Source of the DNA: Xestospongia muta
Taxonomy: Eukaryota > Porifera > Demospongiae > Haplosclerida > Petrosiidae
Length of the DNA: 64,000 nt
Assembly (NCBI GenBank): GCA_963693285.1
Contig: OY848918.1
Span: 3,043,876 to 3,107,875, forward strand
Direction: 5' to 3'
Of this stretch, positions 1 through 59,765 are shown piece after piece. The translations under genes were made by a program, and so were the position numbers. The notes under the pieces are model-generated. The model made no database searches. It worked only from the letters and a program-made list of their open reading frames with translations, and had not been told where the DNA came from. Position 1 is the stretch's first letter. The number at the start of each line of letters is the position of its first letter.

Positions 1-11
1 TATAAACTAAC

Positions 12-429
12 CTAATACTGTTAAAGTAGCTCCTCTCTTCTCATAACCATGTGAAATAAAACTGATCACAGTACATGAAATACTCATTCCATCATTAATA
101 GGTAGTGCTCTTATAGTTAGTACTGATGACCACACATCAACTGATATATTGTTAGTTGTTACTGATATCTCTCTGTCTTGATTACTGGGATCATTGGTTG
201 AAATACCATGTACTGTCCACTTCAATTTGTCTCCTATAGCTTCACAAGTAAACTTAGCCAGTGTATTAATTAGAGTGTTAACTGGTGAGGGAGCTACTGT
301 GATATTAGCTGCATTAAGAAAGAAGAAAAACAATTTGGAAACATTAATTTATCTATTACCATCAGTGTCTCTAATAGTATATAAAAGTCCCACAACAATC
401 AGAAAGATGGCTTTTTGATTTGTTGCCAT
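12..429 (-). CDS. 5' end of an Ig-superfamily receptor gene (signal and Ig exons), continues off the left edge
   Basis: Two exons on the minus strand. Exon 1 (360-429) encodes a start Met followed by a hydrophobic signal peptide of about 23 residues (MATNQKAIFLIVVGLLY...) and ends in phase 1 before GTAATA. Exon 2 (12-308) follows a CAG acceptor and encodes one Ig-like domain: first Cys in KFTC, core Trp in LKWTV, second Cys in SISCTV, and the family core DREISVTTNN. It ends in phase 1 before GTTAGT, as in every paralog of the window. The FN3 exons must lie to the left. The start is chosen because the same MATxxxAIFLI signal begins other paralogs. No defect is visible, but intactness of the whole gene cannot be judged. 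Confidence 0.75.
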
Positions 430-545
430 AGTTTGCAGATCTTGCAAACATTTGTACCCAAAATGGAAAGTAAATAAGTATATTTATAACATTATAATAA
501 TAGTCATAGCAAGTTGTCAAAAATAGTGCTACCCTTTAGCTTCAA
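430..545 (-). promoter_or_regulatory. conserved upstream block of the leftmost receptor gene
   Basis: Read on the minus strand, this stretch carries the elements found just before the ATG of the plus-strand paralogs: CTATGACTATTATTATAATG, a short run of T/A, then CTTTCCATTTTG and a GCAAGA-CTGCA segment. Conservation immediately before the start codon in six loci suggests core promoter plus 5' UTR. No TATA box or Inr was assigned with certainty. Confidence 0.45.
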
Positions 546-1720
546 TTAACAAACAATGAAGATCTGCATGGCTTAAAATATTACATTGCCCAATTGCAAG
601 GTATGTTTAATTATCTGATTTACTTTAATTAAACCATTTAATTGTAAATGTCATTTAGATAATGCATGCATATGTACTGACTTTTGGAACAAGGCTATGT
701 CAGCTTGTCAAAGGGGCTGGTTAGCTTTATGACTAGACTAATGTTCTATATAATTGTTGAATGTTTTTAATGCAATTGTTTTGCAGGCAATTGTAAACTA
801 CTGTCACCATCACCTTACGAGGTAGGTAAGCTGAACTAAAAACATTAATTTGGGTTACTCAGCAAGTTAGCAGCATAGACATTTGTATGTGTATGTGTAA
901 GTGTGTGTGTGATGTGTATGTACCATAGCTGTGAGTCAGATGATAATTTGAGCACCTGACATCTTGATAATGTTTTACCTATATGAGGATAGTCTTATGA
1001 AGCCAGCCATTTTCTTAGAGAGGATAAACATTAAGCAAAGTAGTACTGGGTTGAGTCAGAAAAAATGGCCACTCCATTCAATCTATCATTAAGCATGGTG
1101 ATGCTTAATATGTAGGGATGGGCCAGCAAAAATGTTGCATGAGATGTCTATATTACAAGGACATTAGTTAACATGAAATAATTAACAGTCTAGAGAGATA
1201 AAAAGTTACAAGCAAAAGAAAATTAAACAGCCATTATAGATCTATATGCTTTCTAGCAGTTCAAGTATAGCGGAAGCAAGAAATCCTATTTTCTTTGGGA
1301 ACTTTAACAAAATTTGTTATTGAGCTTTTAATTTTGCTATATAGTATAATTGCACTGAGTATGGACATCATTAAAAAGACATCATGATATATACATGGGA
1401 TGTGAAGTAAGGTATTTATAATCTAACCAATGTTGAAAAATGATAAAAATTATGACTTCTAAGAAATATAAAGACATAAAAGAATAAAGAGTGCTAAACT
1501 ATATTTATCTAGTACCAGTAAAGACCAAATACTACCTTTATGTTCTATAACCAAATTTAAGTAATATTGTATTATATATTAGATACACTGATTATTTTAA
1601 TATTGTCTGTATAAATGCAAAGTTTTAAGGAAAAAAAAAACATATACTGTGACAGCTAGCTCACGATATATAGTAGATGGTATTATTCTAACAAAGCATG
1701 CATCTGAAATTTACTAACAG
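546..1720. other. intergenic, no gene recognised
   Basis: AT-rich sequence with no spliceable open frame seen. At about 1560-1690 it holds a worn copy of a block that recurs at 58.56-58.70 kb. That block contains a short piece of the Cys-domain exon (CTGTGACAGCTAG, TAGTAGATGGT), showing that the exon relic and its flank were duplicated together. Confidence 0.5.
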
Positions 1721-4104
1721 ATCATAGTAATCAAGACAGAGAGATATCAGTAACTACTAACAATATATCAGTTGATGTGTGGTCATCAGTACTAACTATA
1801 AGAGCACTACCTATTAATGATGGGATAAGTATCAGATGTACTGTGATCAGTTTTAGTTCATGTGATTTTGAGAAGAAAGATGCTACTTTAATAATTAGAG
1901 GTTAGCTATTGTGCAGTGAAGCTACTTGCAGCGTGCTGCGTACACAATCTGTTTATAGACCATATAACACAGTATATTTGAAATCAATTGACAAGAAAAC
2001 CTTAAATTGATAGCATATACTTAATTCCTGTTAGCTGTACTTTCTGAACAACTAAAACAACTGTGACTTAGTACCACACATATATCATTACATATGTGAT
2101 GAAGATATTATAACAGATGCTTGCCTGTATATATAATTATTTCAAAAACTGCATTAACATCAATATTTAATTTATTGCAATATTTTCAGCTTAGAATAAC
2201 GTAGGACTTCTCGATTGGCCCAACAACTGCAGTGTTCCAAATGGTGGATTTGACAACGTATCATGTTTAATACAATAATTATGTCATTCACTTCCGTTTT
2301 TCTGTATGCGATAATAATTATCACCTTAACAACCAAAGATTTCATTAATTAAGTTTGTAGGCTACAAATTATGAATACAATATAATAGCCTGATATAGCT
2401 ATACACCTTTAGCATTCATGCATACATGTCGCACTTTCAATATTCTGTAATAGATGCCAAATGCAATATGGCGACAGAGTCTGATGAAAGCTCAGTGCTG
2501 TGGACAGTAAGTTCTTTATTTCATATTGACCTGACTCAGGCTATATAAGATATTTTATGCTCACAGCTACTTAAAACATTTATGTGAAGTCAGGCATATG
2601 AGTATCCTCTATCATTTTACTCTAATGATATTCCACAAGGGAGTATTACAACATATCATGTTATTGTTCAGGATATGAATGGTATTGTACTGATAAATAC
2701 TTATACAACTGATACTATTTATAATAATGGATTTTCTAACAACATCACAATATGTGATATTTATACTGTTATTATAACAGCTTTTACTTAACAATACACA
2801 TCAATTGATATTATTAGCTCAACAAGAGAATACTCAGGAAGTAAGTTGGTAAAACATTATCAAATATAGTGACTGATATTCTATTACAGATTATATAATT
2901 GAAAAAAACTATACTGTGGTATTTGATGACCTAAAAAACAATTTCACTGTACAGTTTAAATTAAAGGTATAATATTATATTTATTGTATAATGGATATAA
3001 ATGTTATTATTTCAAGGTCACTGGTACACCTAGACTGTGTAATAGTCTGTTATATGGTACAACTGAATATGACAATATTGTGACAACTTATCATCTTCAA
3101 TATATTGGAAACACTACTAATAATGATGATGTCATTATCAGTTATAATATTACTGGTCTGGATCCATTTAATAACTACAATTTTACTGTATATATCACAG
3201 ACTATTTTAACAACACAAAAGACCAAGATCATATTGTGTTTAGTGAGTTAACAAATTTATTATTTATTATGAATCAAAATTTCTTATAGCAACCTATTAT
3301 GTCCAAGGACTCACTCTACAGTACTACTCTGATAATGGATCAGTTATTGTAGAGTGTAGGTTTGCTGAGAGATCTACTGCTGATGGATGCCATGTGATAT
3401 TTAGAGAGTCTTCTGAAGAAACTGTAAAGTCTATTAATATAACTAAATCCAGTCTAGAGGAGAGTAGAGTATACCAGTATATAACTCTACCAGTTAGTGG
3501 TAACTATACTGTGACAATTCACGTGTAGTAAATGGTACTATCATAACTAACCCATCTTTTGTGTACCCTCAAGTACTGGAGTATATCTTACTACTACCAT
3601 ATCCTACTGAGACTGTTGTTCCTACCAGTAAGTAATAACTATTGTGTATTGTTCTACATATAAATTTCGAGGTACAACATTAAGTGATGAGACCACAGTC
3701 TCTGTGTTGATCAGCGACATCACTATTACAGCTGGTATAACTTTGATAATGATATCAGTATACTCAAAAGAACCTACTATTTTGTTAAGTAAATAAGATA
3801 AGTAATTATTAATATTTTATATGCTAATTAGGTACCAATCACTTTGTGTTCATCCTCATTACTATTACTAGTAGTACAGTCAGTATTGTAGTAATAATTG
3901 TTATTGCTATAATAGTGATAGCTACTAGTATTACTGTATATTGGAGGAAGAAGAAGAGAGAGCAATATGAAGTTGGATATGAGTAAGGTTGTATTTACAA
4001 ACTAATATTTTGATGTTATTTGATATAGTTAATCAGCAAGAAATTACTACTAATCCTGCATATGAAGAAGGTAAACTATATAGTTATTAGCTAATGTAAT
4101 CATG

Positions 4105-4144
<40 letters not shown>

Positions 4145-4272
4145 ACAGATTGGAGATGAAAAGTAGAAGAGTGGAGTTAGAGACTAATCCATCATATATA
4201 ATAGTGCAGCCTAGTAGGACATGTACTGCTGAGTATGAAAATGTAATAGTCAGTACATCGCATCAATTTTGA
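1721..4272 (+). pseudogene. one-Ig NPxY-tail receptor pseudogene, 5' truncated
   Basis: Exons recognisable by homology to the gene at 12594-14934: 3' half of the Ig exon (about 1727-1900), truncated FN3 exon (about 2600-2840), exons 4 (2890-2966), 5 (3017-3242), 6 (3290-3627), stalk (3672-3788), TM (3832-about 3984) and two tail exons (4029-4070, 4142-4272). Signal peptide and first Ig Cys are missing. Further lesions: an in-frame TAA in the FN3 exon where paralogs read GAA of the FTEQY motif (near 2790), a frameshift in exon 6 near 3522, and loss of the normal donor after the TM exon (GTTGGATATGAGTAAGG instead of GTTGGAGGTATG). The tail nevertheless still encodes NPAY, NPSY and YENV. Orientation is opposite to the intact copies of this type. 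Confidence 0.8.
4107..4141. repeat. (TA)n microsatellite
   Basis: Uninterrupted TA dinucleotides in the last intron of the receptor pseudogene, ending right at its acceptor TATATAG. Paralogs have a shorter TATATATA tract at the same place (12726-12735, 48258-48270), so this is expansion of a pre-existing polypyrimidine-free acceptor context. Confidence 0.85.
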
Positions 4273-6091: not shown

Positions 6092-9000
6092 ATGGCAACA
6101 AGTTACTGGATAATCTTTCTGATTTTTGCGAGACTTCTATTCAACAAGACTGATGCTGCTGGTAAAAATCATTAAATTAACACATTTTATCAGATCTTTC
6201 TCCTAGATATCATTACATCAGCTCCTTTATCAGTGTCTGCACAACTTAACACATTGGTAGATTTTCCCTGTCGCGGTATAGGAGATGAATTAGAGTGGAC
6301 AGTACAGGGCAATTTACTCACTGATCCCAGTAATCAAGACAGAGAGATATCAGTCATTACTAACAATGCATCTCGTGGTACACTGTCATCAGTACTAACT
6401 ATAAGAGCATTACCTATTAATGATGGGATAAGTGTTGGATGTGCTGTGATCAGTTTTAGTTTACGTGATTACGAGAAGAAAGGAGGTACTTTAACACTTA
6501 AAGGTTAGTACATGTGTGAAGATTTTCCACTATATTTTCATATTAACCTAGAAAACGTTTTTAAAAACATTGTATGCATAAATTAAATTACTTACAAGTA
6601 CTTCACATGCTTACAAGGACTTTGCCCTATATAATGTATTGTAATTATTATATATTATATAGAGCAAAGTCCTTTTACATTGAAGCCACTTGCTGTGTGT
6701 ACTAATAGTGTACACAATCTGTTTTATAGCATAGCACACTACTTGAAATATTAATTGACATGAAGGTGGCCTTAATTTTGAGCATTTTTAGACAACTAAA
6801 TAAATATGGCTACCAAACGTATAGCTATTGTTGATCATATGTAACCAAGATGTAAGTGACCATTGCCTGTATATATAATACCACATCAGCTCAAAAGAAC
6901 ATATATAATTTTTCAGCTGGCCTAGCACTTGCAGATAGAGTAATGCTGAAGCAAAAACTTAAGACAGTTATATTATTGTTATTCTATAGGTGTTTCATCT
7001 GTTGAAAATCTTGAATTAAATTTTAATAACAACCCTTTCTTAACCTGGTCTCCTCCATCATTTTACTCTGATGACATTCCACAAGAAATTATTACAACAT
7101 ATCATGTTCATGTTGAGAGTCAAGATCACTCTGTAATAGCAGATGTTATTACAACTAATAACTTCTATCAGTTACCTAATAACCTCACAGAATGTGGCAT
7201 TTATACTGCTAGTGTTAAGGCTATTATTGAGCAATACAGTTCACCAACTACAACTACTACTGAACAATATACTGGAAGTAAGATCATATCAATCATTGAT
7301 TAATGTCTTATTGTTATATCAGATTGTACTACTCATTTAATAAAATTTGATTATATCAATGATTCAAAAGACATTTCTGCAACACGAATACAGTTTACCA
7401 CCAATGTAAGAACTAATGCAAAAAGTACAACTGGTAAATCATAAAATATTAATGCTTCAGTATTAATTCAGTTTCTCCTTTTAAATAGCTCATGTCATAG
7501 AAGCTCCCTCATCAGTTACTGTACCAATTAATACATGGGTGAACTTTACCTGTAAGGGTACAGGAGATATACTGGAGTGGTATGTACAGGGTAATTCACT
7601 CATTGATCCCAGTAATGAAGACAGAGAGTTATATGTTACTACTAAAAACATATCAAGTAATACGTGGTCATCAGTACTAACTATAAGAGCACTACCTATA
7701 AATGATGGGATAAGTGTTGCATGTGTTGTGATCAGTTTTAATCCACATGGCTTTGTAGAAAAAGGAGCTACTTTAACAATTCAAGGTTAGCTTCTACTGT
7801 AATTTGTTATACTGAGAATGCACTTGGCTGATAAATGTTGTTAAAAATGAAATGAATCCAAAATGTGTGTATATCACGACAAAAAATAGCCAATTTTATC
7901 CAAATGACCAAACTATTCCCACTATATGGTATGTATACTATCACACTAGGATTTTTTCTGACCTGGCTCAGGCTATATAAGACCTTTTATGATCACAGAT
8001 ATTTATAACACATTTAATGACAAGTCAGGCATATAAGTGTCTTTGAGAATTGTCATAATGATACTATTAAAAGTGACAGTATATAATGAGAGTTAAAAAT
8101 TTATTTTGGGCCCTATCTATTATTACTGAAATACACGGTTTAAATACTACCAAAACAGTACAGATACTAAATTGAATTAATAGTAGTCCACATGCTTTTG
8201 TAAAAGAGGTAAGAAAGGTCTCATTCCATGAATGGAACATAAGATGTTGTTCAATAAAGACTCTTATTTAAGTTGATTAATTTACTTCTAGTAAAAAGAA
8301 TTTATCAGGCCTATATATCTAAAAATTTCATTACTAAAACAGTTTTACTTGGTCAGTTCCCAATAAGTTGACTGCAAATTATACTTAAATTATTATACTG
8401 AATTTCTATAGGTATTTCTTCTGTCGAGCATTTTTTTTCTCTTTAAACAACAACCTTTCCTTAACCTGGTCTCCTCCATCATTTTACTCTGATGACATTC
8501 CACAAGGAAGTATTACAACATATCATGTTTATGTTAAGAGTCAAGATGGCTCTATAATAATGAATGTAAATACAACTGATAGTTTTCATCAGTTACCTAA
8601 TAAGTTAAAAGTGTGTCACATTTATACTGCTAATATCACAGCTTTTATTGAACAATACACATCAATTAATGTTAGTGCTACAAAAGAATACTCTGGAAGT
8701 AAGTTGACAATATATTATTAAATATAGTGATTGATACTCTATTACAGATTATATAGTTGAAATACAAAATTATACTGTACAATTTACTCAGACTAGTAAT
8801 ACTGTCACTACAAAGTTCAAGTTAAAGGTATAGCATCTTATATACAACAAATTTTAAATGGAACATTTCATTATTATTTAAGGTCAATTCTACATTAAAA
8901 CTTTGTGATAGTCTGGTATTTGGTACAACTAGTACTGAAAATAACAAAAATGTAACAATTTATCATCTTCAAAAAAATGGAAAAAAAAATAAACATGAAA

Positions 9001-9700
9001 CAACTACCCATTATGAAATTACTGGTCTACATCCTTTGACTAACTACACTTTTACTGCATATATCACAGACTCTTTAAACAACACTAAAGACCAAGATCA
9101 TATCAACTTTAGTGAGTTTACACTTTTATATAATAGAACAACAATAATTTTGTCTTAATAATATAGCAACTTACAATGTCCAAGATCTCACTCTGCAATG
9201 CTTCTCTGATAATGGATCAATTTTTGTAGAGTGTTGGTTTGCTGAGAAATCTACTGCTGATGGATGTCATGTGATATTTAGAAAGTCTTCTAAAGGAACT
9301 TTAAAGTCTATTAATATGACTAAATCCAGTAAAAAGGAGAGTACAGTATACCAGTATATAACTCTACCAGTTAGTGGTAATTATACCGTGACAGTTCATG
9401 ATATAGTAGATGGTACTATCATAACTAACCCATCTTTTGTGTACCCTCGAGTACTGGAGTATAAGTTACCACTACCATCTCCTACTAAGACGGTTATTCC
9501 TGCCAGTAAGTAGTATATACTAACTCTGTGAACTATTCTATGATGTCTTATTAGGTACAACATCAATTGATATGACAGTTGACATAACCAGTACTACTAA
9601 TGTAGCTGTCACATCAACACCAAGTTCTTCTACTGTTCCTAAAGTGTCTATCGTATTAGTTGTGTATATAGTTGTTTTAGCACTAATAGTAGAGGTATAG
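6092..9700 (+). pseudogene. two-Ig receptor with one single-base frameshift
   Basis: Ten exons: signal 6092-6161, Ig1 6207-6503, FN3a 6990-7277, linker 7323-7433, Ig2 7489-7785, FN3b 8412-8698, 8748-8827, 8883-9111, Cys domain 9167-9505, stalk/TM 9555-9700. Splice sites and phases match the intact paralog at 21715-25275 throughout. FN3b is 287 bp instead of 288: one base is missing at a run of eight T near 8430, which brings TAA into frame a few codons later. All other exons are open. The last exon ends in a hydrophobic segment (VSIVLVVYIVVLALIVEV) and TAG with no cytoplasmic tail. Because the only defect is in a homopolymer, an assembly error is possible and the gene may be functional. Confidence 0.75.
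6615..6674. repeat. 21-bp inverted repeat in an intron
   Basis: Arms 6615-6635 and 6654-6674 (AAGGACTTTG...CAAAGTCCTT) are complementary with one mismatch around an AT-rich loop. It lies in the long intron after the Ig1 exon. The right arm recurs as GCAAAGTCCTT in the same intron of the paralogs near 41281 and 55062, where no left arm was seen. Confidence 0.65.
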
Positions 9701-11167: not shown

Positions 11168-11171
<4 letters not shown>

Positions 11172-12593: not shown

Positions 12594-14934
12594 TCAAAAT
12601 TGATGTGATGTACTGATTGTTACATTTTCATAGTCAGCAGTACATGTCCTATTAGGTTGTACTGTTATATATGATGGATTACTCTCTAACTCCACTCTTC
12701 TACTTCTCATCTCTAATCTGTTAACTATATATATAATCATGATGATGTTAGCTAATAAACTATATAGTTTACCTTCTTCATATGCAGGATTAGTAGTAAT
12801 ATTTTGCTGTTTAACTATATAAAATATATAAAAATATTAGTTCGTACTCATGACATACCTCCAACCTCATGGTCTTGACTCTTCTTCCTCCTCCAATATA
12901 CAGTAATACTAGTAGCTATCACTATTATAGCAATAGTAATTATTACTACAATACTGACTGTACTACTAGTAATAGTAATGAGGATGAACACAGACTCATT
13001 GGTAGCTAATTAACAGATAAAATATTAATATTTATTAAGGATATAATTACTTAAAAAAATAGTAGGTTCTACTGAGTGTACTGATGTCATCATCAAGGAT
13101 GTATTGGTGATGTCATTGATCAACCAAGAGACTGTGGTCTCATCATTCAATATTGTACCTAGTAATATATTAAGTAGAACAATATACAAGAGTTTTTTTT
13201 TTATTTACTTGATGCAGAGTGTACTGATGTAATTATCAAAGTTATTCCAGCTATACTAGTGATATCACTGTTCAGAGAAACTATCACATGACTTACTGTT
13301 GTACCTCAAAATTTATATGTAGAACAGTACACAATAGTCAGTATATACTACTTACTGGTAGGAACAACAGTCTCAGTAGGAGATGGTAGTAGTAATATAT
13401 ACTCCAGTACTTGAGGGTACACAGATGGGTTAGTTATAATAGTACCATCTACTATATCATAAGGTGTCACAGTATAGTTACCACTAACTGGTAGAGTTAT
13501 ATACTGGTATACTGTACTCTCCTCTATACTGGATTTAGTTATATTAATAGACTTCACAGTTCCTTTAGAAGACTTTCTAAATATCACATGACATCCATCA
13601 GCAGTGGATCTCTTAACAAATCTACACTCTACAAAAACTGATCCATTATCAGAGTAGTACTGTAGAGTGAGTCCTTCAACATGGTAAGTTGCTATAAGAA
13701 GTATTGGTTCATAATAAAATGATAATGTTGTTAACTCACAAAATATGATATGATCTTGGTCTTTAGTGTTGTTAAAATAGTCTTTGATATATACAGTAAA
13801 AGTGTAGTTATTGAATGGATCCAGACCAGTAATATTATAACTGATAATGACATCATCATTATTAGTAGTGTTTCCAATATATTGAAGATGATAAGTTGTC
13901 ACAATATTGTTATATTCAGTTGTACCAAATAACAGACTATTACACACTATAGGTGTACCATTGACCTTGTAATAATAACATTTATATCGACTTTACTATA
14001 AATATATGTTATACCTTCAATTTAAAATGTACAGTGAATTTTTGGGGGGAGTCATCAAATACTACAGTATAATTTTGTATTTCAATTGTATAATCTATAA
14101 TAGAATATCAATCACTATATTTGGAAATAAGTTATGTCAACTTACTTCCTGAATATTCTTTTGTAGAGCTAACATCAATTGATGTGTATTGTTCAGTAAA
14201 AGCTGTTACAATAACAGTATAAATGCCACAGACTGTGAAGTCATTAGAAAATCCATTATTATAAAATGTATCAGTTGTATTAATATTTACTAGTACAATA
14301 CCATTCTTATTCTGAACAATAACATGATATGTTGTAATACTCCCTTGTGGAATATCATTAGAGTAAAATGATGGAGGAGACCAGGTTAAAGCAAGGTTTT
14401 TTAACATCAAAATCAGTAGACCCTCAACAGAGGAAATACCTAAAGGTGGACAAGTATATAATGCTTGTTATAGCAATTGACCTAATAACACAACAATACT
14501 AGATACTAAGATCACATACCTTTAATAGTTAAAGTAGCTCCTTTCTTCTTGAAACCATGTGGATTAGAACTGATCACAGTACATGCAATACTTATCCCAT
14601 CATTAATAGGTAGTGCTCTTATAGTAAGTACTGATGACCACACACCAACTGATATATTGTTAGTAGTTACTGATATATCTCTGTCTTGATTACTGGAATC
14701 AGTGAGTATATTACCCCCTACTGTCCATGATAGTGTATCTCCTATACCCACACAAGTAAAGTTAGCAAGTGTGTAAATTAGAGCAGACACTGATGAAGGA
14801 GCTACTGTGATATCTACAATATATTATATGTTTATATACACACTACAAGTGATCTTTAAAAACTTACTGGCTCCTCTTACTGAACAATTAATCAGGAGCA
14901 AGATAAAAGTAGTCCTTATGATTATCTCATCCAT
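12594..14934 (-). CDS. one-Ig / FN3 type I receptor with double NPxY tail, complete
   Basis: Eleven exons read without interruption (1821 bp, 606 residues): 14868-14934 signal (MDEIIIRTTFILLLINCSVRGA), 14520-14813 Ig domain (FTC, LSWTV, IACTV), 14146-14439 FN3 (LTWSPPSFY...CGIYTVIVTAF), 14015-14094 and 13740-13965 second FN3-like unit (ITGLDPFNNYTFTVYI), 13356-13691 a domain with FVECRF and DGCHVIF cysteines ending GNYTVT, 13209-13304 and 13051-13158 Ser/Thr-rich stalk, 12859-13005 TM helix followed by YWRRKK, 12773-12814 and 12594-12724 tail. The tail carries NPAY, NPSY and YENV. NPxY is known as a PTB-domain and endocytosis signal and YxN as an SH2-type site; use here is inferred. All introns are GT-AG, mostly 50-80 bp. 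It faces the plus-strand gene at 6092. A cell-surface recognition receptor is likely; the ligand is unknown. Confidence 0.88.
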
Positions 14935-39000: not shown

Positions 39001-39873
39001 GGCATAATTTTCAGTGTCATCAAATATCACAGTATAATTTTGTATTTCAACTGTATAATCTGTGATGGAATATCAATCACTATATTTGGTAATATTATGT
39101 CAACTTACTTCCAGAGTATTCGCTTGTTGAACTAACATCAATTGATATGTATTGTTCAGTAAAAGCTATTACAATAACAGTATATATATCACAGATTGTG
39201 AAGTTATAAGAAAATCCATTAGTATAAAATGTATCAGTTGTATTATCATCTACTATTACAGAACCATCTTTACTCTAAACGTAAACACGATATGTTGTAA
39301 AACTCCCTTGTGCAATATCATTAGAATAAAATGATGGACGAGACCAGGTTAAAAAAAAGGTTATTTGACATCAAAATAAGTAGATCCTCAACAGAAGAAA
39401 TACCTAAATAGTACAAGTATATTTGTATACAACATTAGATGCTAAACTTGCATACCTTCAATAGTTAAAGTAGCTCCTTTTTTTTCATATCATATGGATT
39501 AGAAAAATTGAACACAGTACATCCAACACCTATTCCATTATTAATAGGTAGTGCTCTTAGAGTTAGTACTGATGACCACACATCAACTGATGTATTGTTA
39601 GTAGTTACTGATATCTCTCTGTCTTGATTACCAGGATCAGTGAGTAAATTACCATGTATTGTCAATGACAGTATATCTCCTGTACCCACACAGGTAAAGT
39701 TAGCCAGTGTATAAATTAGAGCAGACACTGATGAAGGAGCTACTGTAATATCTGTAATATATTGTACATTTACATCATTACACATTACAAGTGATTACTT
39801 AGACTTACTAGCTCCATTTACCGATATCAGTCAAAAGCAAGATAAAAATAGTCCTTAAGATGATCTCATCCAT
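36067..39873 (-). pseudogene. hybrid receptor: broken one-Ig ectodomain joined to an ITIM-like, Tyr-rich tail
   Basis: Ectodomain exons (about 38315-39873) match the one-Ig family but are damaged: a 2-bp deletion at the signal exon end, core Trp changed to Leu (LSLTI), a base lost in an A-run at the Ig end (near 39485), +1 in a T-run and an in-frame TAG in the FN3 exon (near 39277), and Cys to Tyr in VVEYRF. The TM exon (about 37920-38030) resembles the type (iii) TM (VAVVILIIMISMIVYICVIVQRMRK) but needs a frameshift. The tail is different from other minus-strand genes and open: 37511-37753, 36851-37150, 36279-36408, 36163-36231, 36067-36116 (TAA). The 300-bp exon contains TPVYDNI and SQYAEV; the latter fits the S/I/V/L-x-Y-x-x-I/V/L ITIM consensus. 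A short NPAV end closes it. Splicing of the tail is predicted only. Confidence 0.65.
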
Positions 39874-44693: not shown

Positions 44694-47501
44694 GGAGTGC
44701 TATAAGATTCAAACTTCAGCTATATAACATCTATTATAATATTTTGCTACTTATATATGAAATGTCTTTGCTTTGTAATGCCTCCTAAATTTTTAGTTTG
44801 CTAAATATTCCAATATTAATGGTGAAATTTAAATAATAAAGTTTATACTAAAATTTATAATAAAAATTTAAAATACTTTCAATAAATTTGAAAAAAAAAA
44901 CACTCTAAATATAAATCTATGATGATAATTTTTAACCATTGATTGAATTATAGAATAAGATGAGATTAGCAATCTACCATGTTCAAGGACTCACTCTACA
45001 TGCAGTACTACTCTGATAATTGATCAATTGTTTTAAAGTGTAGATTTGCTGAGATATTTACTACTAATGGATGTCATGTAATATTTATAGAGTCTTCTAA
45101 AGGAACTGCAAAGTCTACACTCTACCAGTTAGTGGTAACTATACTGTGACAGCTCATGATATAGTAGATGGTACTATTATAACTAACCCATCTGTTGTGT
45201 ACCCTCAGATACTGGAGTATATCTTATTACTACCATCTTCTACTGAGACTGTTAAGTTTGCTAGTAAGTAGTATAATAATAACTATTGCTTGATTCATAA
45301 TTATAATAGTATTTACTAAGAATAATAGAGACAAACTCTAGCACAATGACATCAATAGTAGCACCTACTATTTGGATTTGTGTATTTTATGGTGTATTAC
45401 TTGTTAATATTATGACTAACTTAACTTGGTGCACAGCTACAAATTAGCCTGCTTGTGCAATTGCTATAAATTGTGATAGTTATAAGACCTTATTGATATC
45501 ATCCAAGTATATAAGTTGTCGCATTCAGGAAAATAATTTTTAATGATTTTGTGTAATGTCAAAGGTTGCCTCATCCATAACATTAACATCAACACCATAA
45601 TTTATTGATAATTGTATAACATCACTGTAACTTCTTGTAGCAGCATGTATAGCTCTCAAGACATATCAACCTTCCTGAAATTATAATTATGATACTAATT
45701 AATGACATCAAATTGTATACAGTACTTTATCCAAGGGTTAAATGGGATGTAAGATAAAGACTATTTATAATGATTAATGTTACTATTTATAATTGGTGAT
45801 AATAACTTTTTAATTTCCTTTTATTAGGTCATTCTTCATATAATGAATGTGTAACATGCCAGTATGTCAGTTCATGCAGCTAGTGAGTGCTTCAAAATTG
45901 CTTTCCCAGAAAATTAATCTGGCAAAGAATATACTGGATTAATATTTTAAACCCCTGATCAAAAACCATTTTTAAAAGGGAAAAATATTTCATTTGTATA
46001 ATAATAAAACATACAATATGTATCCTGCTCCACTAAGAATACTTTTGAGTTTGAAATCATGAATATTATCAATAATGCATCCAATATATATAACTTATAT
46101 AACTCATGTACAGATGGGACAAATGTGTATATATATATATATATATCATAACATGTTCACACTGGTACCTTGATTCATATGTAACTCAGAATTCAAAGGC
46201 TAGGGTACAAATGGAGGTTTGGTTAGTAAGGTAGTGTTCTTCAACATTTCATTTTTTGATTCCCAACGTGTACATGTCACTTCTTTGAACTAGTTTTCTT
46301 AACAAATGAACTAGTAATTGATTACAATTAATGATATGAACAGGAACTATAATTTATAGTTCCTGTTTTTTTTATAATAATAATAATACAGTCATTGGAT
46401 TAGTGTAAGTTAATAACCATTACGAATACGGAAAATAGTGAATAATTTCAATTGATGCTACATCATTTTACTATTAATATTACAATCATTGAATGAGTAC
46501 TAGTGTAAGTTAATAACCAGCATTAAAAACAAATAAAACCAATTGTGTGAAAATAAATGATTTTGTACATTGATTCTAATGAAGAATGGCAAGTACCACC
46601 AAAGAAACAATACTGTTACATTCATTGTTAATTTTTAACAAGTGGAAATACGACAACCAATGTAAATTCCAACACTGTAAACTTAATTAATGTTTGGTCA
46701 ATGAGTGGAGCAAATGATGGTGATAGTTAGGATAGCATCTTCTGTTAGAGAGAGAGAAAGAGAGAGAGTACCGATGATAAATAGCTGAGACTGACATATG
46801 ACGTATAGGTGATATTCCAGGGCTAGCAATTGCAGAACATAACTCAATAACTTGTTGACTATATATGGTCATCAGCAGGTATCAAAAACTGTAAAAGAAC
46901 AAAAGTAATATTAATAGTGAAAGCACTAGGCTACCAATTATAATGTATTGAAGGTGTAGTGCTAGTGAATATAATTAATGCACTAGAAAAGTACTGCTTC
47001 AAATGAGGATTAATAACAAAAGGACAACAGACTCTAGCTGATGTTCTTCATAGCATCAGTTTAACTGAACTGTCAGACACTGATGGAGTTTAAAGGTGTT
47101 TATTGCTTCCTTTATAATGATTATGCAACCAAAACAGTATATAGTGATGGCAATTTTATCATCCTTACACAAGTGACACAAACAATTAACGATATTCACC
47201 AACCATCATGTTCAAATCAAACAATAAATAACAATCAGTATATTGTTGCATTTTATACCTGTGCTATTATGTAGGGATGATGTAATTAATTGTCATCCCT
47301 ACTGTCTTGTTTTCATTCTTTGTATTGAACTGACATTAGCTATTCCTATATTTACTTCGTTTTTTAGAAAATGTTTTCTATTTACCTGTTAGTATATCTA
47401 GTGTATATTGAAACGAAATACTAGTTCCATGCTATTAATAGAAGATGTACTATATCAAATTATAAAAATTATAAAAATCTTTATTCTGGTAATGTGGTAC
47501 C

Positions 47502-48125: not shown

Positions 48126-50467
48126 TCAAAATTGATGTGATGCGCTGACTATTACATTTTCATAGTCAGCAGTACATGTCCTACTAGGTTGTACTGTTAT
48201 ATATGATGGATTAGTCTCTAACTCCACTCTTCTCCTTCTCATCTCCAATATGATTACTATATATATATATAATCATGATGATGTTAGCTAATAAACTATT
48301 CAGTTTACCTTCTTCATATGCAGGGTTATTAGTAATATCTTGCTGATTAACTATAAAGAATTATATAAAGACATTAGTTTATACTCTTTACATACCTCCA
48401 ACTTTGTGGTCTTGTCTCTTCTTCTTTCTCACATATATGGTAATACTAGTAGCTATCACTATTATAGCAATAACAATTATTATTACAATATTGACTGTAC
48501 TACTAGTAATAGTAATGAGAAATAACACAGACTGTTTGGTAGCTAATTAACAGATAAAATATTAATATTTATTAAGGAAATATTTACTTGAAAAAATAGT
48601 AGGTTCTACTGAGTGTACTGATGTCATCATCAAAGTTATACCAGCCGTACTAGTAATATGATTGATCAACTCAGAGACTGTGGTCTCATCAATTAATGTT
48701 GTACCTAGTAATATATCATGTAGAACAGTACACAATTTCTTATTTATTCGATACTGAATTTACTGACGTCATTATCAAAGCTATTCCTGCTGTACTAGTG
48801 ATATCATTATTCAGAGAAACTGTCACAACAGTTAATGTAGTACCTAGTAATATGTTATAAGTACACAAGAATTATTACTTACTGTTGTGAACAACAGTCT
48901 CAGTAAGAGATGCTAATAGTAAGATATACTCCAGTACTTGAGTGTACACAACAGATGGGTTAGTTATAATAGTACCATCTACTATATCATGACCAGTCAC
49001 AGTATAGTTACCACTAACTGGTAGACTTATATACTGGTGTACTGTAATCTCCTCCATACTGGATTTACTCATATTAATAGACTTCACAGTTCCTTTAGAA
49101 GGCTCTCTAAATATAACATGACATCCATCAGCAGTAGATCTCTCAGCAAACCTACACTCTATAACAACTGATCCATTATCAGAGTAGTACTGTAGAGTGA
49201 GTCCTTGGACATGATAGGTTGCTATAAGAAATATTGGTACATAATAAAATGATCAATTTGTTAACTCACTAAACATGATATGATCTTGGTCTTTAGTGTT
49301 GTTAAAATAGTCTGTGATATATACAATAAAAGTGTAGTTATTTAATTGATCCAGACCGGTAATATTATAACAGATAATGACATCATCGTTATTAGTAGTG
49401 TTTCCAATATATTGAAGATGATAAGTTGTCACAATATTGTTATATTCAGTTGTACCAAATAACAGACTATTACACAGTCTAGGTGTACCATTGACCTTGA
49501 AATAATAAAAGTTTATATCTACTTAACTGTAAATATGATACTATACCTTTAAATTAAAATGTGCAGTGACATTTTTTGGGATATCATCAAATATTACTGT
49601 ATAGTTTTGTATTTCAACTGTATCTGAATAATCTATAATAGAATATCATTCACTATATTTGGAAATAAGTTATGTCAACTTACTTCCTGAATATTCTTTT
49701 GTAGAGCTAACATCAATTGATGTGTATTGTTCAGTAAAAGCTGTTACAATAACAGTATAAATGCCACAGATTATGAAGTTATTAGAAAATCCATTATTAT
49801 AAAATGTGTCAGTTGTATTAACATTTACTAATACAACACTATCCTTATTCTGAACAATAACATGATAAGTTGTAATACTCCCTTGTGGAATATCATTAGA
49901 GTAATATGATGGAGGAGACCAGGTTAAGGAAAGGTTTTTAAACATCAAAATCTGTAGACCCTCAACAGGTGAAATACCTAAAGAAGGACAAGTAATGCTT
50001 GTTATAGCAACTGACCTAACAACAAACAATACTAGATACTAAGATCACATACCTTCAATAGTTAAAGTAGCTCCTTTCTTCTTGAAACCATATGGATTAG
50101 AACTGATCACAGTACATGCAATACTTATCCAATCATTAATAGGTAGTGCTCTTATAGTTAGTACTGATGACCACACATCAACTGATATACTGTTAGTAGT
50201 TACTGATATCTCTCTGTCTTGATTACTGGGATCAGTAAGTATATTACCCCCTACTGTCCATAATAGTATATCTCCTGTACCCACACAAGTAAAATTAGCC
50301 AGTGTGTAAAGTGGAGCAGACATTGATGAGGGAGCTACTGTGATATCTACAATATATTATATGTTTATATACACACTACAAGTAATCATTAAAAACTTAC
50401 TAGCTCCTCTTACTGAACAGTTAATCAGGAGCAAGATAAAAGTAGTCTTTATGATAATCTCATCCAT
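48126..50467 (-). CDS. one-Ig / FN3 type I receptor with double NPxY tail, near complete
   Basis: Eleven exons (1839 bp, 612 residues if all are used): 50401-50467 signal (MDEIIIKTTFILLLINC), 50053-50346 Ig (FTC, LLWTV, IACTV), 49684-49977 FN3 (LTWSPPSYY), 49547-49632 and 49270-49495 FN3-like, 48883-49221 Cys domain, 48748-48843 and 48588-48704 stalk, 48396-48542 TM then YVRKKKRQD, 48309-48350 and 48126-48256 tail. The tail repeats NPAY, NPSY and YENV. Every frame is open. The only defect is the donor of the first stalk exon, where GT has become AT (48747); reading on meets TAA at once, but the exon is phase 1-1, so skipping it keeps frame and loses 32 stalk residues. Close paralog of the gene at 12594-14934; the same surface-receptor role is inferred. 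Confidence 0.82.
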
Positions 50468-54557: not shown

Positions 54558-55015
54558 ATGGCAACTACCTATTGGATAATCTTTCTGATTTTTGTGAGAC
54601 TTCTATTCAATGAGACTGATGCTGCTGGTAAAATCGTTAAACTAATACTTAGTGTTATAAATTTTTCTTAGATCTCATTACATTAGCTCCTTTATCTGTG
54701 ACTGCACGACTTCACACATCAGTGGATTTTCCCTGTCAAGGTATAGGAGATGTATTAAAGTGGACAGTACAGGGCAATTTACTCACTGATCCCAGTAATC
54801 AAGACAGAGAGATATCAGTAACTACTAACAATATATCAGTTGATGTGTGGTCATCAGTACTAACTATAAGAGCACTACCTATTAATGATGGGATAAGTAT
54901 TGCATGTACTGTGATCAGTTTTAGTTCATATGGTTTTGAAAAGAGAGTAGCTACTTTAACCATTAAAGGTTAGCATATGTGAATGAAACTTCTAATTAAA
55001 GTGTATGTATGTGTG

Positions 55016-55051
<36 letters not shown>

Positions 55052-57674
55052 GAATGCAAAGTCCTTTTACTACCACATATTCATTAACAACAGCAATATA
55101 ACATATTATATTTGTTTAAAACAACATAGATTTTTTCTCTCTGCACTGGCAAAGCACAGCATGCCTTTCTTTGTAACAAAAATATTTTGTTGTACAGTGC
55201 TTAAATTAAATTACATGGTACATAAATAACTATTGTTATTACAAGCCCTATAACCACAAAGTATAGGATAGGATATTTTTGTTATTACTCACATACAAAT
55301 GACATTCTTTATGGTCAGTCACACCATTATCTTGGACTACATGTTATACTTAAGCTTGTATACAGCTATCATCTTTTATTCTATTGTAAGTGTGTGCAAT
55401 GTTTTTGAGCTGACCATTCAAATTAAAACACAAACTGTAATCAATGATTCAATTTGACTCTCAAAATAGTGGTGCAACAAATTGTGTGACTGGTAAAGAT
55501 TATGAAAAAGAAAATTCTTCTCTTAAATGTTCTCTGCATGTTGATGTATCCAGCACACATTTATACCAACTCATCACGTTGTAGCATTATTGTTTTACTG
55601 CAACACATATCATCCCTCAAATATTATTAGAATGATCTATACTATCACAATCTTGTTTATTGTATATATGTATGCATCAAAGTTGCGGCATAGCTAATTT
55701 ATATTGACATTGCAGAATAATCCTGACAACAAAACTTTGAAACAGTTACATTATTATTATTATATAGGTGTTTCATCTGTTGAGAATCTTGAATTTGATT
55801 TTAATAACAATCCTTCCTTAGCCTGGTCTCCTCCATCTTTTTACTCTAATGATATTCCACAAGGACGTATTACAACATATCATGTTCATGTTAAGAGTCG
55901 AAATGGCTCTGTAATAGCAGATGATAATACAATTGATACATTCTATCATCTACCTAACAATCTCACAATCTGTGATATTTATACTGCTAGTGTTAAAGCT
56001 TTTATTGAGCAATACAGTTCACTTACTACAAAAACCACTGAACAAAATACTGGAAGTAAAATCATATCAACCATTGATTTAATATCTTTTTGTAAAATTA
56101 GATTATACTACTAATGTCATGAAATTCAATTATATAAATGACTCAGAAAACATTACTATAATACCAATACAATTTACTACCAATGTAATAACTAAATGTT
56201 TGTACACAAATGTTGATTTTTTGAATTATTTATAGATCAGTCATCTTCATGACTTGTGTGATAATATCATATCTTTTGTATCAAGTATAACTCATGATCC
56301 AGTTCCTTTTTCCATTTTGAATCTAACTAATGACAATGAAACAATGACAATTACATATAGTACTATTATTGGTCTACATCCCTATATCAATGATACATTT
56401 ATTGAATACATTATGGCTTTAGTTAATAACACAGAAGGTCAGTCACAATCTGTGAGTTAATTATATTACAAATATATGTCTTATTAACTCCTTCATTAAC
56501 ACTATAGCAACCTACTATGTCCATGTACTAGAAAAACCCTATTGGATATCTGGTGTAGTAATTGCTGGAGTTATATTGATCATGATTACAGCAATGATAG
56601 TGGTAGTTTGTTTTCTTATTGTTCAGAGAAGTAAGAAGAAGCCATCAATAACTGTCAGTAAAGGTATCACTGACTATAATAGTAATAATAATGATTATAT
56701 TACATTTCCACTAACAGGGAGAGCAGGAGTACATTATCCACAAGATAACAATAATAAGTATATTAATGATATATGTGGTAAAACATTATTATTGTTTATA
56801 TCAGTTATGAAAATATAGTTCAGTTAGTGGGCATTACTACAATAACAAAAACTATTGAAGTTTCTTCTTCTCATAATCAATGTCATGCATGATGAGGTAT
56901 GTTAGTTTAGTACTATATGATAGCACTGTTATAGTTAATAATAATGAATCATATCATTTAAAGTATACCACTATACTGATATATATGCAGTCTCAGGCTT
57001 GTCTCAGTACAATATGAAAACAAAATGTAGAGATCCAACCAGACACACCATTTCTGAGGTGTGAATAGAATTTGGGACAACAATATAAAATGGAGTAACA
57101 AACGTTTAGCATAGTATGGTATAATATAGTTAGTTCAGATTTAGAAAAGATGATGAATAGTAGTTTGTGTTGTGGGTGATGAAATATGCTGATCTACCAG
57201 TTTAACAACATGATCAATCTATCTTTCTCTACTAAATGTCCATTAAACATAACAATATTTACTGTTAGTGTCATGAGAACTGAGTAATCATCATGAATAT
57301 AATTAACTTATTTATTACTACAGGGTGGGGCTATTTACTCTGGAACTAACTCACTCACTTTTAGAAATGATTTATCTTTAAAACATGATGTTCAACAAAC
57401 ATGTTTTAATGAGAATGATACAGAGCAAGGTATCTCACAAACAGTTGGAAAGGTAATTAATCCCTTAATATGATGGTAGTAATAGTTATATTAGTCATCA
57501 TTATTAGTGATATTATTATAGATATTAGATAACAGGGCTGGACTAGGAGTCAAAGGTAATGTACCAGAAGCAAACATAGATGCTAGCACTCTGGTTGTGA
57601 TGAATGGCAGGTTCTCATCACTTCAGGGAAAAGACTGTGCTCATAATACAATTGGTGATATAGACAAGAAATAA
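54558..57674 (+). CDS. type (iii) one-Ig / FN3 receptor with Tyr-rich tail, probably truncated tail
   Basis: Exons: 54558-54627 signal (MATTYWIIFLIFVRLLFN), 54672-54968 Ig (DFPC, LKWTV, IACTV), 55768-56055 FN3 (LAWSPPSFY), 56102-56184 and 56236-56437 membrane-proximal unit, 56508-56757 TM (WISGVVIAGVILIMITAMIV then RSKKKPS) and first tail part, 56805-56896, 57324-57452, 57522-57674 (TAA). Tail motifs: DYITF, HYPQ, NYENI. Two points are doubtful. The fifth exon needs donor GAAG/GTCAGT to keep frame, because the usual GTGAGT site is out of phase after a local deletion. Exon 56805-56896 is 4 bp longer than in the paralog at 20022-20109 (CATGCATGATGAG), giving TGA at 56890, so the protein may stop there and leave the last two exons untranslated. 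Ectodomain and TM are open. Confidence 0.72.
55003..55049. repeat. TATG / TA microsatellite in an intron
   Basis: GTATGTATGTGTGTATG then a TA run, in the long intron after the Ig exon. Frames across it are artefacts. Confidence 0.85.
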
Positions 57675-57723
57675 AAACTTGACTTTCTAACCTATTTTAT
57701 TTATATAATTGAAATTGTAATAG

Positions 57724-58374
57724 GTTATGAACATCCCAACCCTGACATTTCCTCTGATATTGGAATGAATTCCTGTGTTGGTAAGTGATGTATTGTATGA
57801 TATTTCATTTTATATTTGTTTATTAGTTATTAACAACTTCCTAAGCATTGTTACTAATAAAGAGAATAACGAGACTCGTGAAGTCATCTTTGTCGCTTCA
57901 TATAAAGTCGTTGCCACACTGCCTCATTTTAATGCAAAATCAGAGTTTGAACTTTGTCGATATTCTTACCAGTTTGCAATTGAAGATAAATCAGATAATG
58001 TTGATAAACCTAAAGAAGAAAACCCCAAATTTCAGTTAGTTTGTGTTGTTTCAAAGTTAGTTAAGAGAAATGACATAGTCGTGGGTTCTAATATACCTTT
58101 GTTGGATCCAAATAAGTATTGCAATGTTATGACTGAGAATTATGATCACAGCATTACTTGTGAACATACTTCTAATGAGTAAGTTATAGTTATATCTGAT
58201 CACATTATATGTAACTCCTCAATATGTTGTATTTTTAGATCTGGTGTCAGTCTCATTCCCAATCCTGGTTTTGGTGTCAAAACTTTTATAACTACCACTC
58301 TTGTATCCATGTCATCAGAATGTCAAATGCTCACTTGTTTATCAAATGATTTTTCTAAGGGCACAGCCTCATTG
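57724..58374 (+). CDS. three spliceable exons of an unrecognised, probably extracellular protein (partial)
   Basis: Exons 57724-57780 (phase 1-1), 57827-58178 (phase 1-2) and 58239-58374 (phase 2-0) each have AG acceptors and GTAAG-type donors and join in one open frame of about 180 residues. The sequence has five to six spaced Cys (NSCV, ELCRY, LVCVV, YCNV, ITCEH, SECQMLTC) and N-x-S/T sites, consistent with a secreted or ectodomain segment. No start, stop or known domain was identified. It begins only 50 bp after the stop of the receptor at 54558, and a decayed piece of the first exon occurs at about 4990-5040. It could be alternative exons of the receptor cluster or a separate gene fragment. 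Confidence 0.5.
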
Positions 58375-59765
58375 GTAAGATTCTAAATAATAATAATAAT
58401 TATTATCTAATCATTCAGGGGTCATTTCGTTGTGTGGGATGAAATAAGTGTATTGCTAATTGCTGTTATGACATAAAGCTATAATTGTTCATAAGAAAAT
58501 AAGACCTTGTTCATCACTCCTCTAACCCTCAACTTATTTTCTTTGTTTTTCTATAACAAGTATTGTATATAGGATATTAATATTGTCTGTGTAAAGTTGC
58601 TATAAAGGCAGAACTCTTATGGAAAAAACCTATGCCGTGACAGCTAGTTCATGATATATAGTAGATGGTGTTATTTTAATACATGCAAGTACTATATATA
58701 GCTATAGTAACATGAGCTTGATTCCTATAACAGATTCATATATAATTCACTCACTGATCCCAGTAATCAAGACAGAGAGATATCAGTAACTACTAACAAT
58801 ATATCAGTTGATGTGTGGTCATCAGTACTAACTATAAGAGCACCACTACCTATTAATAATGGGATAATATGATCAATTTTATTTCACATGATTTTGATAA
58901 GAGAGGAGATACATTAACACTTATATTAAGTCTCACTTTTTCTGACTCCACTTCTCAAGCTATCATTAAGAAAATACTTGAAAACAATCTTCCAGCTTTA
59001 GTAACTTTCATTTAGTCGATGTTCATGATGTGGCACTTGGCCACAGTTCTGCAATGGAGAAGCAGGAAGCTGGCCAGTAATTGCAAATTATTGTCAGTAG
59101 TAATATATGGTTGAAAGAGATTGCAGAAGTTGTATCTCATGAGTTCCAACCACAGGGATACAAAATTAAATTATGGTAATACCAAAGGTTGGTGTATGGT
59201 TTACAAAATTTGCTTTAGCAGTGGTTAAGGTTGTCCTATCCTGTACTTGTTGTAGTTTCTACATATTCCAATGCTAGAATGAAGAATGAGTTGGGAGTTG
59301 AGCCTCGAGATATTGAAAGTAGCATTTTAGACACATGCTATGTGTTTGATCAAGAGTGGTTCTGTTCCAAAATAACAAGTGTGACTTAGTATCAAACGTA
59401 TGTCCTTATGTGATGAAAGTATTGTAACTGATGCTTCCCCGTAAATATACCTATATTTCAAATGCTGCATTAACAACAATGCATAATGTTTTATTACAGC
59501 ATTTTCAGCTTAAAATAACGTAGGATTTCTCCTAACTCAATAACCGCAGTGTTCCAGGTGATTGTTTCTACACACATATTATGTATAATAAGAATTATTA
59601 TAATTATGTCATTCACTTCCGTTTTATTGTATGCGATTATAATTGCCACGGTAGCAATCATGATTTTATTAATTAAGCAAAAAGTATAGTCTATGATCAG
59701 TTTTAGTTCATACGTTTTTGAGAAGAAAGGAGCTACTTTAACAATTAAAGGTTAACATAAGTATG
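58375..59765. pseudogene. receptor exon relics in a duplicated block with an insertion
   Basis: 58560-58920 and 59380-59760 repeat 1560-2360: a Cys-domain scrap (near 58620-58670), the 3' half of an Ig exon (about 58743-58900, with AGAGCACCACTACC and further damage) and a separate Ig 3' end (59696-59752). Between them about 58920-59350 is unrelated DNA with a possible worn coding remnant on the plus strand (VDVHDVALGHSSAMEK-like frame with stops). No family was recognised. Confidence 0.5.

What the first reader, a model, noticed from the sequence alone, without database searches (positions are those of the whole stretch)
1..58900. Clustered Ig/FN3 receptor family with birth-and-death signature: candidate recognition locus
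Seen: about a dozen loci of one receptor family in under 60 kb, in both orientations, of which only three or four are open and the others carry distinct lesions. Known: clusters of variable Ig-type receptors with many pseudogenes underlie allorecognition and immune receptor systems (for example Hydractinia Alr, vertebrate KIR/LILR). Inference: this may be an undescribed self/non-self or immune recognition locus in an early-branching animal.
Basis: partly seen in the sequence, partly recalled or inferred. Interest (0 to 1): 0.88.

Follow-up and report, generated by a model that had tools for sequence, protein, structure and literature searches.

The report
Giant sponge Ig/FN3 receptor gene cluster
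In what appears to be the giant barrel sponge, this stretch is a small part of a chromosome region packed with more than a hundred copies of a little-studied cell-surface receptor gene, many of them broken, whose changeable outer parts and signalling tails resemble immune recognition receptors, although what they recognise is unknown.

Summary
The window (C2:3043876-3107875 of a genome matching the giant barrel sponge Xestospongia muta) holds 15 units of one receptor family on both strands: two intact end to end (12594-14934 and 48126-50467, minus), three possibly open, ten damaged or fragmentary. The membrane-proximal exon (D4) occurs at about 130 loci on this chromosome, at 1.1-1.9 and 2.9-3.2 Mb. 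The protein is signal peptide, Ig, FN3, FN3, FN3-like D4, TM, tail. One ectodomain class occurs with two tail types: a short one with NPxY/YxxV tyrosines and a long one with an ITIM/ITSM-like pair. Both recur in Amphimedon queenslandica. SH2-SH2-phosphatase genes are present. D4 is 91-95% identical in DNA across up to 1.65 Mb, while the exon and intron before it are 51-60% between blocks, which indicates exon-scale gene conversion or module exchange. dN/dS is about 0.5, so gene-wide positive selection is not shown. A recognition role is the best reading; allorecognition specifically cannot be tested here, for want of polymorphism, expression or binding data.

The parts
12594..14934 (-). G3, intact class A receptor gene, 11 exons, 606 aa: signal peptide, Ig, FN3, FN3 (two exons), FN3-like D4, two stalk exons, TM, two tail exons with NPAYEEV, NPSYITV and ADYENV
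   Evidence: spliced in frame, all introns GT-AG; audit
48126..50467 (-). G12, intact class A receptor gene (10 exons; the first stalk exon has no donor and is left out in frame), tail NPAYEEV, NPSYITV, ADYENV
   Evidence: spliced open frame with one terminal stop
10..429 (-). G0, signal peptide and Ig exon of a class B unit that runs off the left end; further exons outside the window, second FN3 only partly matched
1708..4269 (+). G1, class A pseudogene: Ig cut at 5' end, stop in FN3, frameshift in D4; TM and short tail present
6092..9697 (+). G2, class B unit (Ig-FN3-Ig-FN3-FN3-D4): second FN3 exon damaged at 5' end; after D4 it reads into a hydrophobic end and stop; the stretch that holds the TM exon in G5 is missing
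19002..19936 (+). G4, class C unit, 5' truncated (part FN3, FN3c, TM)
21715..26431 (+). G5, class B unit (signal peptide, Ig-FN3-Ig-FN3-FN3-D4), possibly open to a hydrophobic C-terminus; about 1 kb separates this from the TM exon at 26300
27742..29777 (-). G6, class A pseudogene: Ig truncated, stop in FN3, tail cut
29797..30127 (+). G7, isolated D4 exon with frameshift, directly adjoining the truncated Ig of G6
32598..34823 (-). G8, class A pseudogene: frameshifts in FN3 and TM, stops in D4 and tail
35386..35792 (+). G9, signal peptide and Ig fragment with stops
36818..39873 (-). G10, class A ectodomain followed by a long tail (SQYAEV and VQYCVI); Ig exon lacks its donor and FN3 exon has a stop
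40764..45253 (+). G11, class B pseudogene: stops in first Ig and FN3, D4 split
54558..56716 (+). G13, class C unit: signal peptide, Ig, FN3, FN3c, TM, tail; first three exons in frame, 3' end not modelled
58744..58866 (+). G14, Ig fragment
13356..13691 (-). D4 exon of G3, the homogenised membrane-proximal FN3-like domain (STADGCHV core)
   Evidence: AlphaFold2 pLDDT 86.5; FN3-like in PDB comparison; exon identity pattern

Best explanation
This is a segment of a very large, haplosclerid-sponge family of germline-encoded type I membrane receptors used for recognition at the cell surface. Shown: the anatomy (signal peptide, Ig, two FN3, FN3-like D4, stalk, TM, tail), about 130 D4 loci in two blocks of one chromosome, frequent pseudogenes, two conserved tyrosine-rich tail types found behind the same ectodomain class, and exon-by-exon mosaic evolution. 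Inferred: the Ig/FN3/FN3 part binds ligand; on engagement a Src-type kinase phosphorylates the tail; the long tail's ITIM/ITSM-like pair recruits SH2-SH2 phosphatases (SHP type) as a brake, while the short tail's NPxY/YxxV tyrosines recruit PTB or SH2 adaptors or a Syk-type kinase as an accelerator. Gene conversion keeps D4 nearly identical in the copies, so D4 can act as a homology joint at which different outer modules and tails are exchanged. Whether the ligand is microbial, symbiont or another sponge's tissue is open.
For: Intact genes. Genome rows: D4 140, Ig 138, first FN3 118, short tail 56, long tail 10. D4 fold FN3-like. Long-tail tyrosine pair kept in nine of the ten long-tail rows, the tenth having lost both, and recurring in Amphimedon P0005, P0017 and in P0008/P0009, which share one tail. 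Among 21 short-tail exon matches in the 264 kb read, the two tail tyrosines are kept in 20 of 21 and 18 of 20 readable; Amphimedon P0001, P0004, P0010 and P0012 carry NPAY tails. One ectodomain class lies in front of both tails, judged by position: short (G3, G12, spliced) and long (2906, 2989, 3024 kb and window G10). SH2-SH2-phosphatase in one frame at four places plus one copy inferred from adjacent exons; exon orders consistent with SH2-SH2-kinase at two. dS between classes A and B: second FN3 1.16, D4 0.15; block 1 to block 2 class A: 1.81 (near saturation) and 0.11. In Amphimedon D4 is 57% identical within species against 43% to G3, second FN3 25% against 22%, Ig 51/45, first FN3 46/39.
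Against: dN/dS of 0.45-0.62 within classes shows no gene-wide positive selection; the TM exon is near 1 (0.98). No expression, polymorphism or ligand data. Tail motifs are short consensus matches; phosphorylation and partner binding are untested; long tails were not spliced. Two other long-tailed Amphimedon proteins (P0002, P0013) lack the pair. The short tail's spacing varies in Amphimedon, so it is not a conserved ITAM. An Amphimedon graft time course reported no enrichment for cell adhesion or aggregation-factor terms (PMC5450542, passages and section 15); its gene list was not seen.
Confidence: 0.6

Rival explanations
1. Allorecognition locus proper: the family (or part of it) decides self/non-self at tissue contact, as Hydractinia Alr or the Botryllus fuhc receptors do.
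For: Clustered Ig-type receptors, many pseudogenes, ITIM-like tails, two tail types behind one ectodomain class, and strand alternation in block 2 (34 runs against 24.6 in 10,000 shuffles, p=0.0024, fragments included) recall the FF/FcoR pairs described for Botryllus (PMC12065747, passages).
Against: No polymorphism, linkage or graft data. Block 1 shows no alternation (76 of 80 loci minus). Amphimedon graft RNA-seq reported no adhesion enrichment (PMC5450542).
Confidence: 0.25
2. Microbe or symbiont sensing family: innate receptors diversified against bacteria in a sponge with a rich microbiome.
For: Lineage-specific expansion with turnover is usual for innate receptors (recalled); Ryu et al. 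report immune-domain expansions in sponges (PMC4772301, passages).
Against: No known microbe-binding domain was recognised in G3; no challenge data.
Confidence: 0.35
3. Ordinary cell-adhesion or cytokine-type receptors amplified by neutral tandem duplication, with no diversity-driven role.
For: dN/dS about 0.5 in the ectodomain exons; FN3 exons are abundant elsewhere in this genome (150 of 2606 candidates scored).
Against: Tail tyrosines are conserved in both tail types across two genera, D4 is homogenised while the second FN3 diverges, and the copy number is extreme.
Confidence: 0.25
4. Assembly artefact: haplotypic duplicates or misjoins inflate the cluster.
For: Repetitive region; the genome note says contig order is unknown in part of chromosome 2 (16.1-18.9 Mb) and that 28 haplotypic duplications were removed (PMC12398682, passages).
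Against: The window and both blocks lie outside that stretch; no N in 264 kb; many copies differ strongly and have different lesions; the family is multi-copy in Amphimedon too, four protein records sharing one contig length. Read coverage could not be checked.
Confidence: 0.05

Closest known systems
Amphimedon queenslandica uncharacterised Ig-like/FN3 proteins (LOC109581525, LOC109585251, LOC109585247, LOC109585260, LOC109586865, LOC109585793 and others)
   Same: Same domain order, STADGCHV core in D4, both tail types, more variable second FN3; true homologues
   Different: 31-37% identity to G3; 18 protein records found (P0001-P0005, P0007-P0019), some overlapping; uncharacterised; one (P0004) has a sub-threshold Calx-beta domain in front
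Botryllus schlosseri fester family and fester co-receptors (FF/FcoR)
   Same: Clustered polygenic Ig receptors; tails with ITIM, hemITAM or core YxxI/L/V motifs; pairing of loci (PMC12065747, passages)
   Different: Ig/sushi ectodomains; no Botryllus protein among the hits; genetic and functional evidence exists there and none here
Hydractinia Alr family (allorecognition complex)
   Same: Cluster of 41 Ig-type receptor genes (PMC11999971, passage); ITAM and ITIM domains reported (PMC12065747, passage)
   Different: V-set/I-set Ig domains rather than Ig-FN3-FN3-FN3; fusion phenotype shown there, untested here
Vertebrate KIR/LILR clusters
   Same: Rapid turnover, pseudogenes, shared ectodomains with alternative tails (recalled)
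   Different: Ig-only ectodomains (recalled); G3 by sequence has no PDB relative, its Ig profile only weak antibody V-domain matches
Sponge aggregation factor and Geodia Ig receptor kinases
   Same: Earlier sponge recognition candidates (recalled; Grice 2017 not held)
   Different: G3 and G12 end in short tails without a kinase; no Calx-beta match in G3

Membership tests
Ig/FN3 cell-surface receptor | signal peptide, Ig and FN3 domains, one TM helix | tested here: met
   G3 and G12. Ig by C-W-C pattern; Ig_3 in 4 of 12 copies, best E 1.7e-4, E 0.1 limit; antibody V domains in PDB profile search, E 6e-4. FN3 by Pfam below cut-off, above it in P0005. D4 by predicted fold. TM and signal peptide judged by eye, no predictor run.
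Hydractinia Alr-type allorecognition gene | high allelic polymorphism that predicts fusion or rejection | not testable with these tools
   only one haplotype of one individual
Hydractinia Alr-type allorecognition gene | V-set/I-set Ig ectodomain | tested here: not met
   one Ig followed by FN3-type domains in class A; Ig-FN3 doubled in G2, G5, G11
ITIM-bearing inhibitory receptor | [SIVL]xYxx[IVL] in the cytoplasmic tail, conserved among copies | tested here: met
   at least one such match in 10 of the 11 tails aligned (ten long-tail rows plus one class B tail); the exception, 2908k, lost both tyrosines. Several second motifs are TxYxx[VI]. Consensus recalled; no chance expectation was computed.
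ITIM-bearing inhibitory receptor | phosphorylated tail recruits SHP phosphatase | not testable with these tools
   SH2-SH2-phosphatase genes exist; binding untested
ITAM-bearing activating receptor | YxxL/I-x6-12-YxxL/I | tested here: not met
   short tail mostly V at +3 of the first tyrosine and V or I at the second, spacing 9 in X. muta, but spacing 14 and 5 in Amphimedon P0001 and P0004
Sponge receptor tyrosine kinase with Ig domains | cytoplasmic kinase domain | tested here: not met
   spliced G3 and G12 stop after tails of about 70 aa; no kinase row listed in C2:1.0-3.3 Mb, in a capped list (128 of 1237 candidates scored)
Sponge aggregation factor | Calx-beta domains | tested here: not met
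   no Calx-beta match at E <= 1 in G3; a sub-threshold one in Amphimedon P0004
Sponge aggregation factor | Wreath domain, secreted proteoglycan core | not tested
   no model for it was searched

The most novel reading that the evidence does not exclude
A sponge variable/constant receptor system: outer Ig-FN3-FN3 modules diversify, the D4 exon is held constant by exon-sized gene conversion, and recombination through D4 places the same outer module on either an accelerating (NPxY/YxxV) or a braking (ITIM/ITSM-like) tail. The locus would then be a paired-receptor recognition complex of the kind known from vertebrates and tunicates, present in a sponge.
Probability: 0.3. Interest if true: 0.92.

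Novelty: new variant of a known kind. Interest (0 to 1): 0.74.

Why it matters
Sponges discriminate self from non-self grafts (PMC5450542, abstract), and a 2025 review states that candidate allorecognition proteins of sponges, cnidarians and ascidians share no conservation and that the mechanisms are unknown (PMC12065747, passage). This is a physically mapped, very large receptor family that Pfam cut-offs mostly miss, with tails that carry vertebrate-type inhibitory motifs and an unusual variable/constant mosaic. If it is confirmed as a recognition system, it puts paired-receptor logic in sponges and gives a concrete locus for haplotype, expression and graft tests. If it is not, it is still a clear natural case of exon-restricted homogenisation beside strong divergence.

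Tried and rejected
Receptor kinases or Geodia-type Ig kinases: rejected, since G3 and G12 end without a kinase and no kinase row is listed in the cluster (capped list). Aggregation factor: no Calx-beta in G3. Bacterial or viral origin: rejected by introns, sponge relatives and genome size. D4 as an unknown fold: AlphaFold2 and PDB comparison place it as FN3-like; other beta-sandwiches, such as glycoside hydrolase accessory domains, score equally, so the assignment is by fold only. Positive selection: pairwise dN/dS was Ig 0.40, first FN3 0.54, second FN3 0.57, tail exon 0.47, but TM exon 0.98; one search failed for D4 because the seed lacked one residue, redone (0.45-0.62 within classes, 0.32-0.58 between); 7 of 34 loci without an assignable class were dropped. 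No site model was run. Full-length structure of P0001: poor (pLDDT 42.9), used only loosely. PDB by sequence with G3: two hits at E about 0.3, unrelated. Sub-threshold Pfam hits to Stevor (G3, P0012) and other TM-rich families were taken as composition matches. Relatives outside Haplosclerida: none among 4, 6 and 15 hits (overlapping lists), but that search needs shared words and and 38 scored only the top 7,995-7,996 candidates. A spliced model of a block-2 gene failed for lack of a start exon and is not used. Ten paper searches (one search was for the assembly) returned no description of this family; the library holds only openly licensed PMC papers, so this does not prove absence from print.
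Full report
What the window is. The window is C2:3043876-3107875 of an assembly of 158,027,690 bases in 28 contigs. C2 has 22,145,118 bases and C1 35,349,711, C3 13,573,638 and C10 6,491,800. These match chromosomes 1, 2, 3 and 10 of Xestospongia muta odXesMuta1.1 (35.36, 22.15, 13.58, 6.49 Mb; total 158.52 Mb; PMC12398682, outline and passages). The organism is therefore inferred, from assembly sizes only, to be the giant barrel sponge, a haplosclerid demosponge.

Observation. One search lists 251 self-matches of at least 120 bases and clusters the open frames into exon families. An exon-level audit with splice-site checks gives 15 units. G3 (12594-14934, minus) splices into one open frame of 606 aa over 11 exons, every intron GT-AG and 44-80 bases long. 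G12 (48126-50467, minus) splices into one open frame over 10 exons, one stalk exon without a donor being left out. G0, G5 and G13 may be open but could not be followed to their ends. The other ten are damaged or fragments.

Scale. One D4 exon from G3, searched against the whole genome, gives 140 rows (150 of 225 candidates scored): 83 lie at C2:1.115-1.865 Mb, 53 at 2.865-3.224 Mb, two elsewhere on C2, one on C3 and one weak row on C10. Merging same-strand rows within 500 bases leaves 80 and 50 loci, fragments included. Block 1 is nearly all minus (76 of 80 loci); block 2 alternates strands more than shuffled order (34 runs against 24.6, p=0.0024), giving many head-to-head neighbours. Ig, first FN3 and short-tail queries give 138, 118 and 56 rows, mostly in the same places; exceptions are one C3 copy, a C10 copy, four short-tail rows at C2:1.02-1.04 Mb and eight weak Ig rows (31-35% identity) at C2:0.69-1.0 Mb.

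Tails. Short tail: NPAYEEV, NPSYITV, ADYENV/I. Among 21 matches to the last exon in the 264 kb read (two may be pieces of one copy), its first tyrosine is kept in 20 of 21 and its second in 18 of 20 readable. Long tail: ten genome rows. Nine of the ten share [SC][HQ]Y[AV]E[VI] and, about 20 residues on, [VTS][QE]Yxx[VI] followed by GHLN or EHLN; the tenth has lost both tyrosines. Amphimedon P0005, P0017 and P0008/P0009 (one shared tail) have the matching YAxI ... VEYxxV pair, while P0002 and P0013 lack it; P0001, P0004, P0010 and P0012 have NPAY tails. Class A ectodomains carry the short tail in G3, G12 and others, and lie directly in front of the long tail at 2906, 2989 and 3024 kb and in window G10 (by position, not spliced). 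Conversely, eight short-tail genes of block 1 that I checked (tails at 1388, 1403, 1413, 1440, 1496, 1500, 1645 and 1649 kb) have a first FN3 only 35-42% identical to G3's; others in block 1 reach 50-63%. That the motifs are ITIM/ITSM-like, and that NPxY binds PTB domains, is recalled knowledge, and no chance expectation was computed. Machinery: SH2-SH2-phosphatase in one frame at C5:8741067-8742560 and at three adjacent places within C3:11956215-11961741, plus a copy inferred from adjacent exons at C8:8076976-8078868; exon orders consistent with SH2-SH2-kinase at C11:1007423-1011940 and C7:7842503-7845389 (lists for kinase and phosphatase are capped).

Mosaic evolution. Among 34 D4 loci (15 class A, 12 class B, 7 unassigned and dropped), dS of the second FN3 is 0.078 within A, 0.60 within B and 1.16 between, while D4 is 0.14, 0.16 and 0.15: D4 carries no class signal. 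Ig is intermediate (0.26, 0.34, 0.36). Four block-1 genes against class A of block 2: second FN3 1.81 (near saturation), first FN3 0.93, Ig 0.37, D4 0.11; among the four, 1.13, 0.30, 0.30 and 0.08. In DNA, D4 is 91-95% identical in the ten comparisons made, while the intron before it and the second FN3's main exon are 51-60% identical between G3 and the block-1 genes; the intron after D4 is 77-88% over the 26-36 alignable bases, so the tract may run past the exon on that side. G3 and G12 are 94-95% identical in Ig, first FN3 and the second FN3's main exon, 82% in its small exon, 91% in D4 and 56% in the next intron. Ongoing conversion of D4, or exchange of modules around it, is the simplest cause. 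In Amphimedon, 13 units give 57% D4 identity within species against 43% to G3; the same figures are 25 and 22 for the second FN3, 46 and 39 for the first, 51 and 45 for Ig, so the within-species excess is largest in D4.

Selection. dN/dS within classes is 0.45-0.62 in the four ectodomain exons; one search gave 0.47 for the tail exon and 0.98 for the TM exon. This is purifying or relaxed on average; it neither shows nor excludes positively selected sites.

Interpretation. A large, fast-turning receptor family with conserved signalling tails and variable outer domains is best read as a recognition system. The steps from ligand to tail phosphorylation to SHP, adaptor or Syk-type partners are inferred. 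Allorecognition is one possibility among at least two and cannot be tested without population data.

Literature. Passages were seen in PMC12398682 (also outline), PMC4772301, PMC8242945, PMC5450542 (also section 15), PMC12065747 and PMC11999971; none of these passages describes this family. Ryu et al. (PMC4772301) report immune-domain expansions in sponges with a focus on SRCR domains. The aggregation-factor paper of Grice et al. 2017 is not held and is recalled only. The searches listed no report of it in this library.

Noticed in passing
G000 C2:9.41-9.70 Mb, C11:3.76-3.99 Mb, C12:0.98-1.34 Mb, C7:0.31-0.72 Mb: Dense clusters of protein tyrosine phosphatase exons; the C7, C11 and C12 intervals also hold top FN3 rows: probably large receptor-phosphatase families in this sponge.
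   Followed up: no
G000 C3:11956215-11961741: Three adjacent single-frame SH2-SH2-phosphatase (SHP-type) genes, with one more on C5 and one inferred on C8.
   Followed up: partly
window 9524-9697 and 25099-25272; C2:3001440: Three class B copies end after D4 in a short hydrophobic stretch and stop, which could be a GPI-anchor signal rather than a lost TM.
   Followed up: no
window 29772-29797: Truncated Ig of a minus unit abuts a truncated D4 of a plus unit, as if one deletion removed the shared upstream region of a head-to-head pair.
   Followed up: no
window 16336-17750, 52311-53683, 59869-60688: A dispersed repeat (about 75-82% identical copies) outside the receptor exons.
   Followed up: no
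G000 C2:0.69-1.0 Mb: Eight weak Ig rows (31-35% identity): perhaps an older branch of the family beside block 1.
   Followed up: no
Amphimedon P0008 and P0009: Two database proteins share an identical long tail on ectodomains of about half identity; either module exchange, alternative splicing or a fused gene prediction.
   Followed up: no
Amphimedon P0010: Tail made of many NPAYDRP repeats.
   Followed up: no
Amphimedon P0004: Sub-threshold Calx-beta domain (E 4e-4) in front of the Ig-FN3 ectodomain, a domain also recalled from sponge aggregation factors.
   Followed up: no
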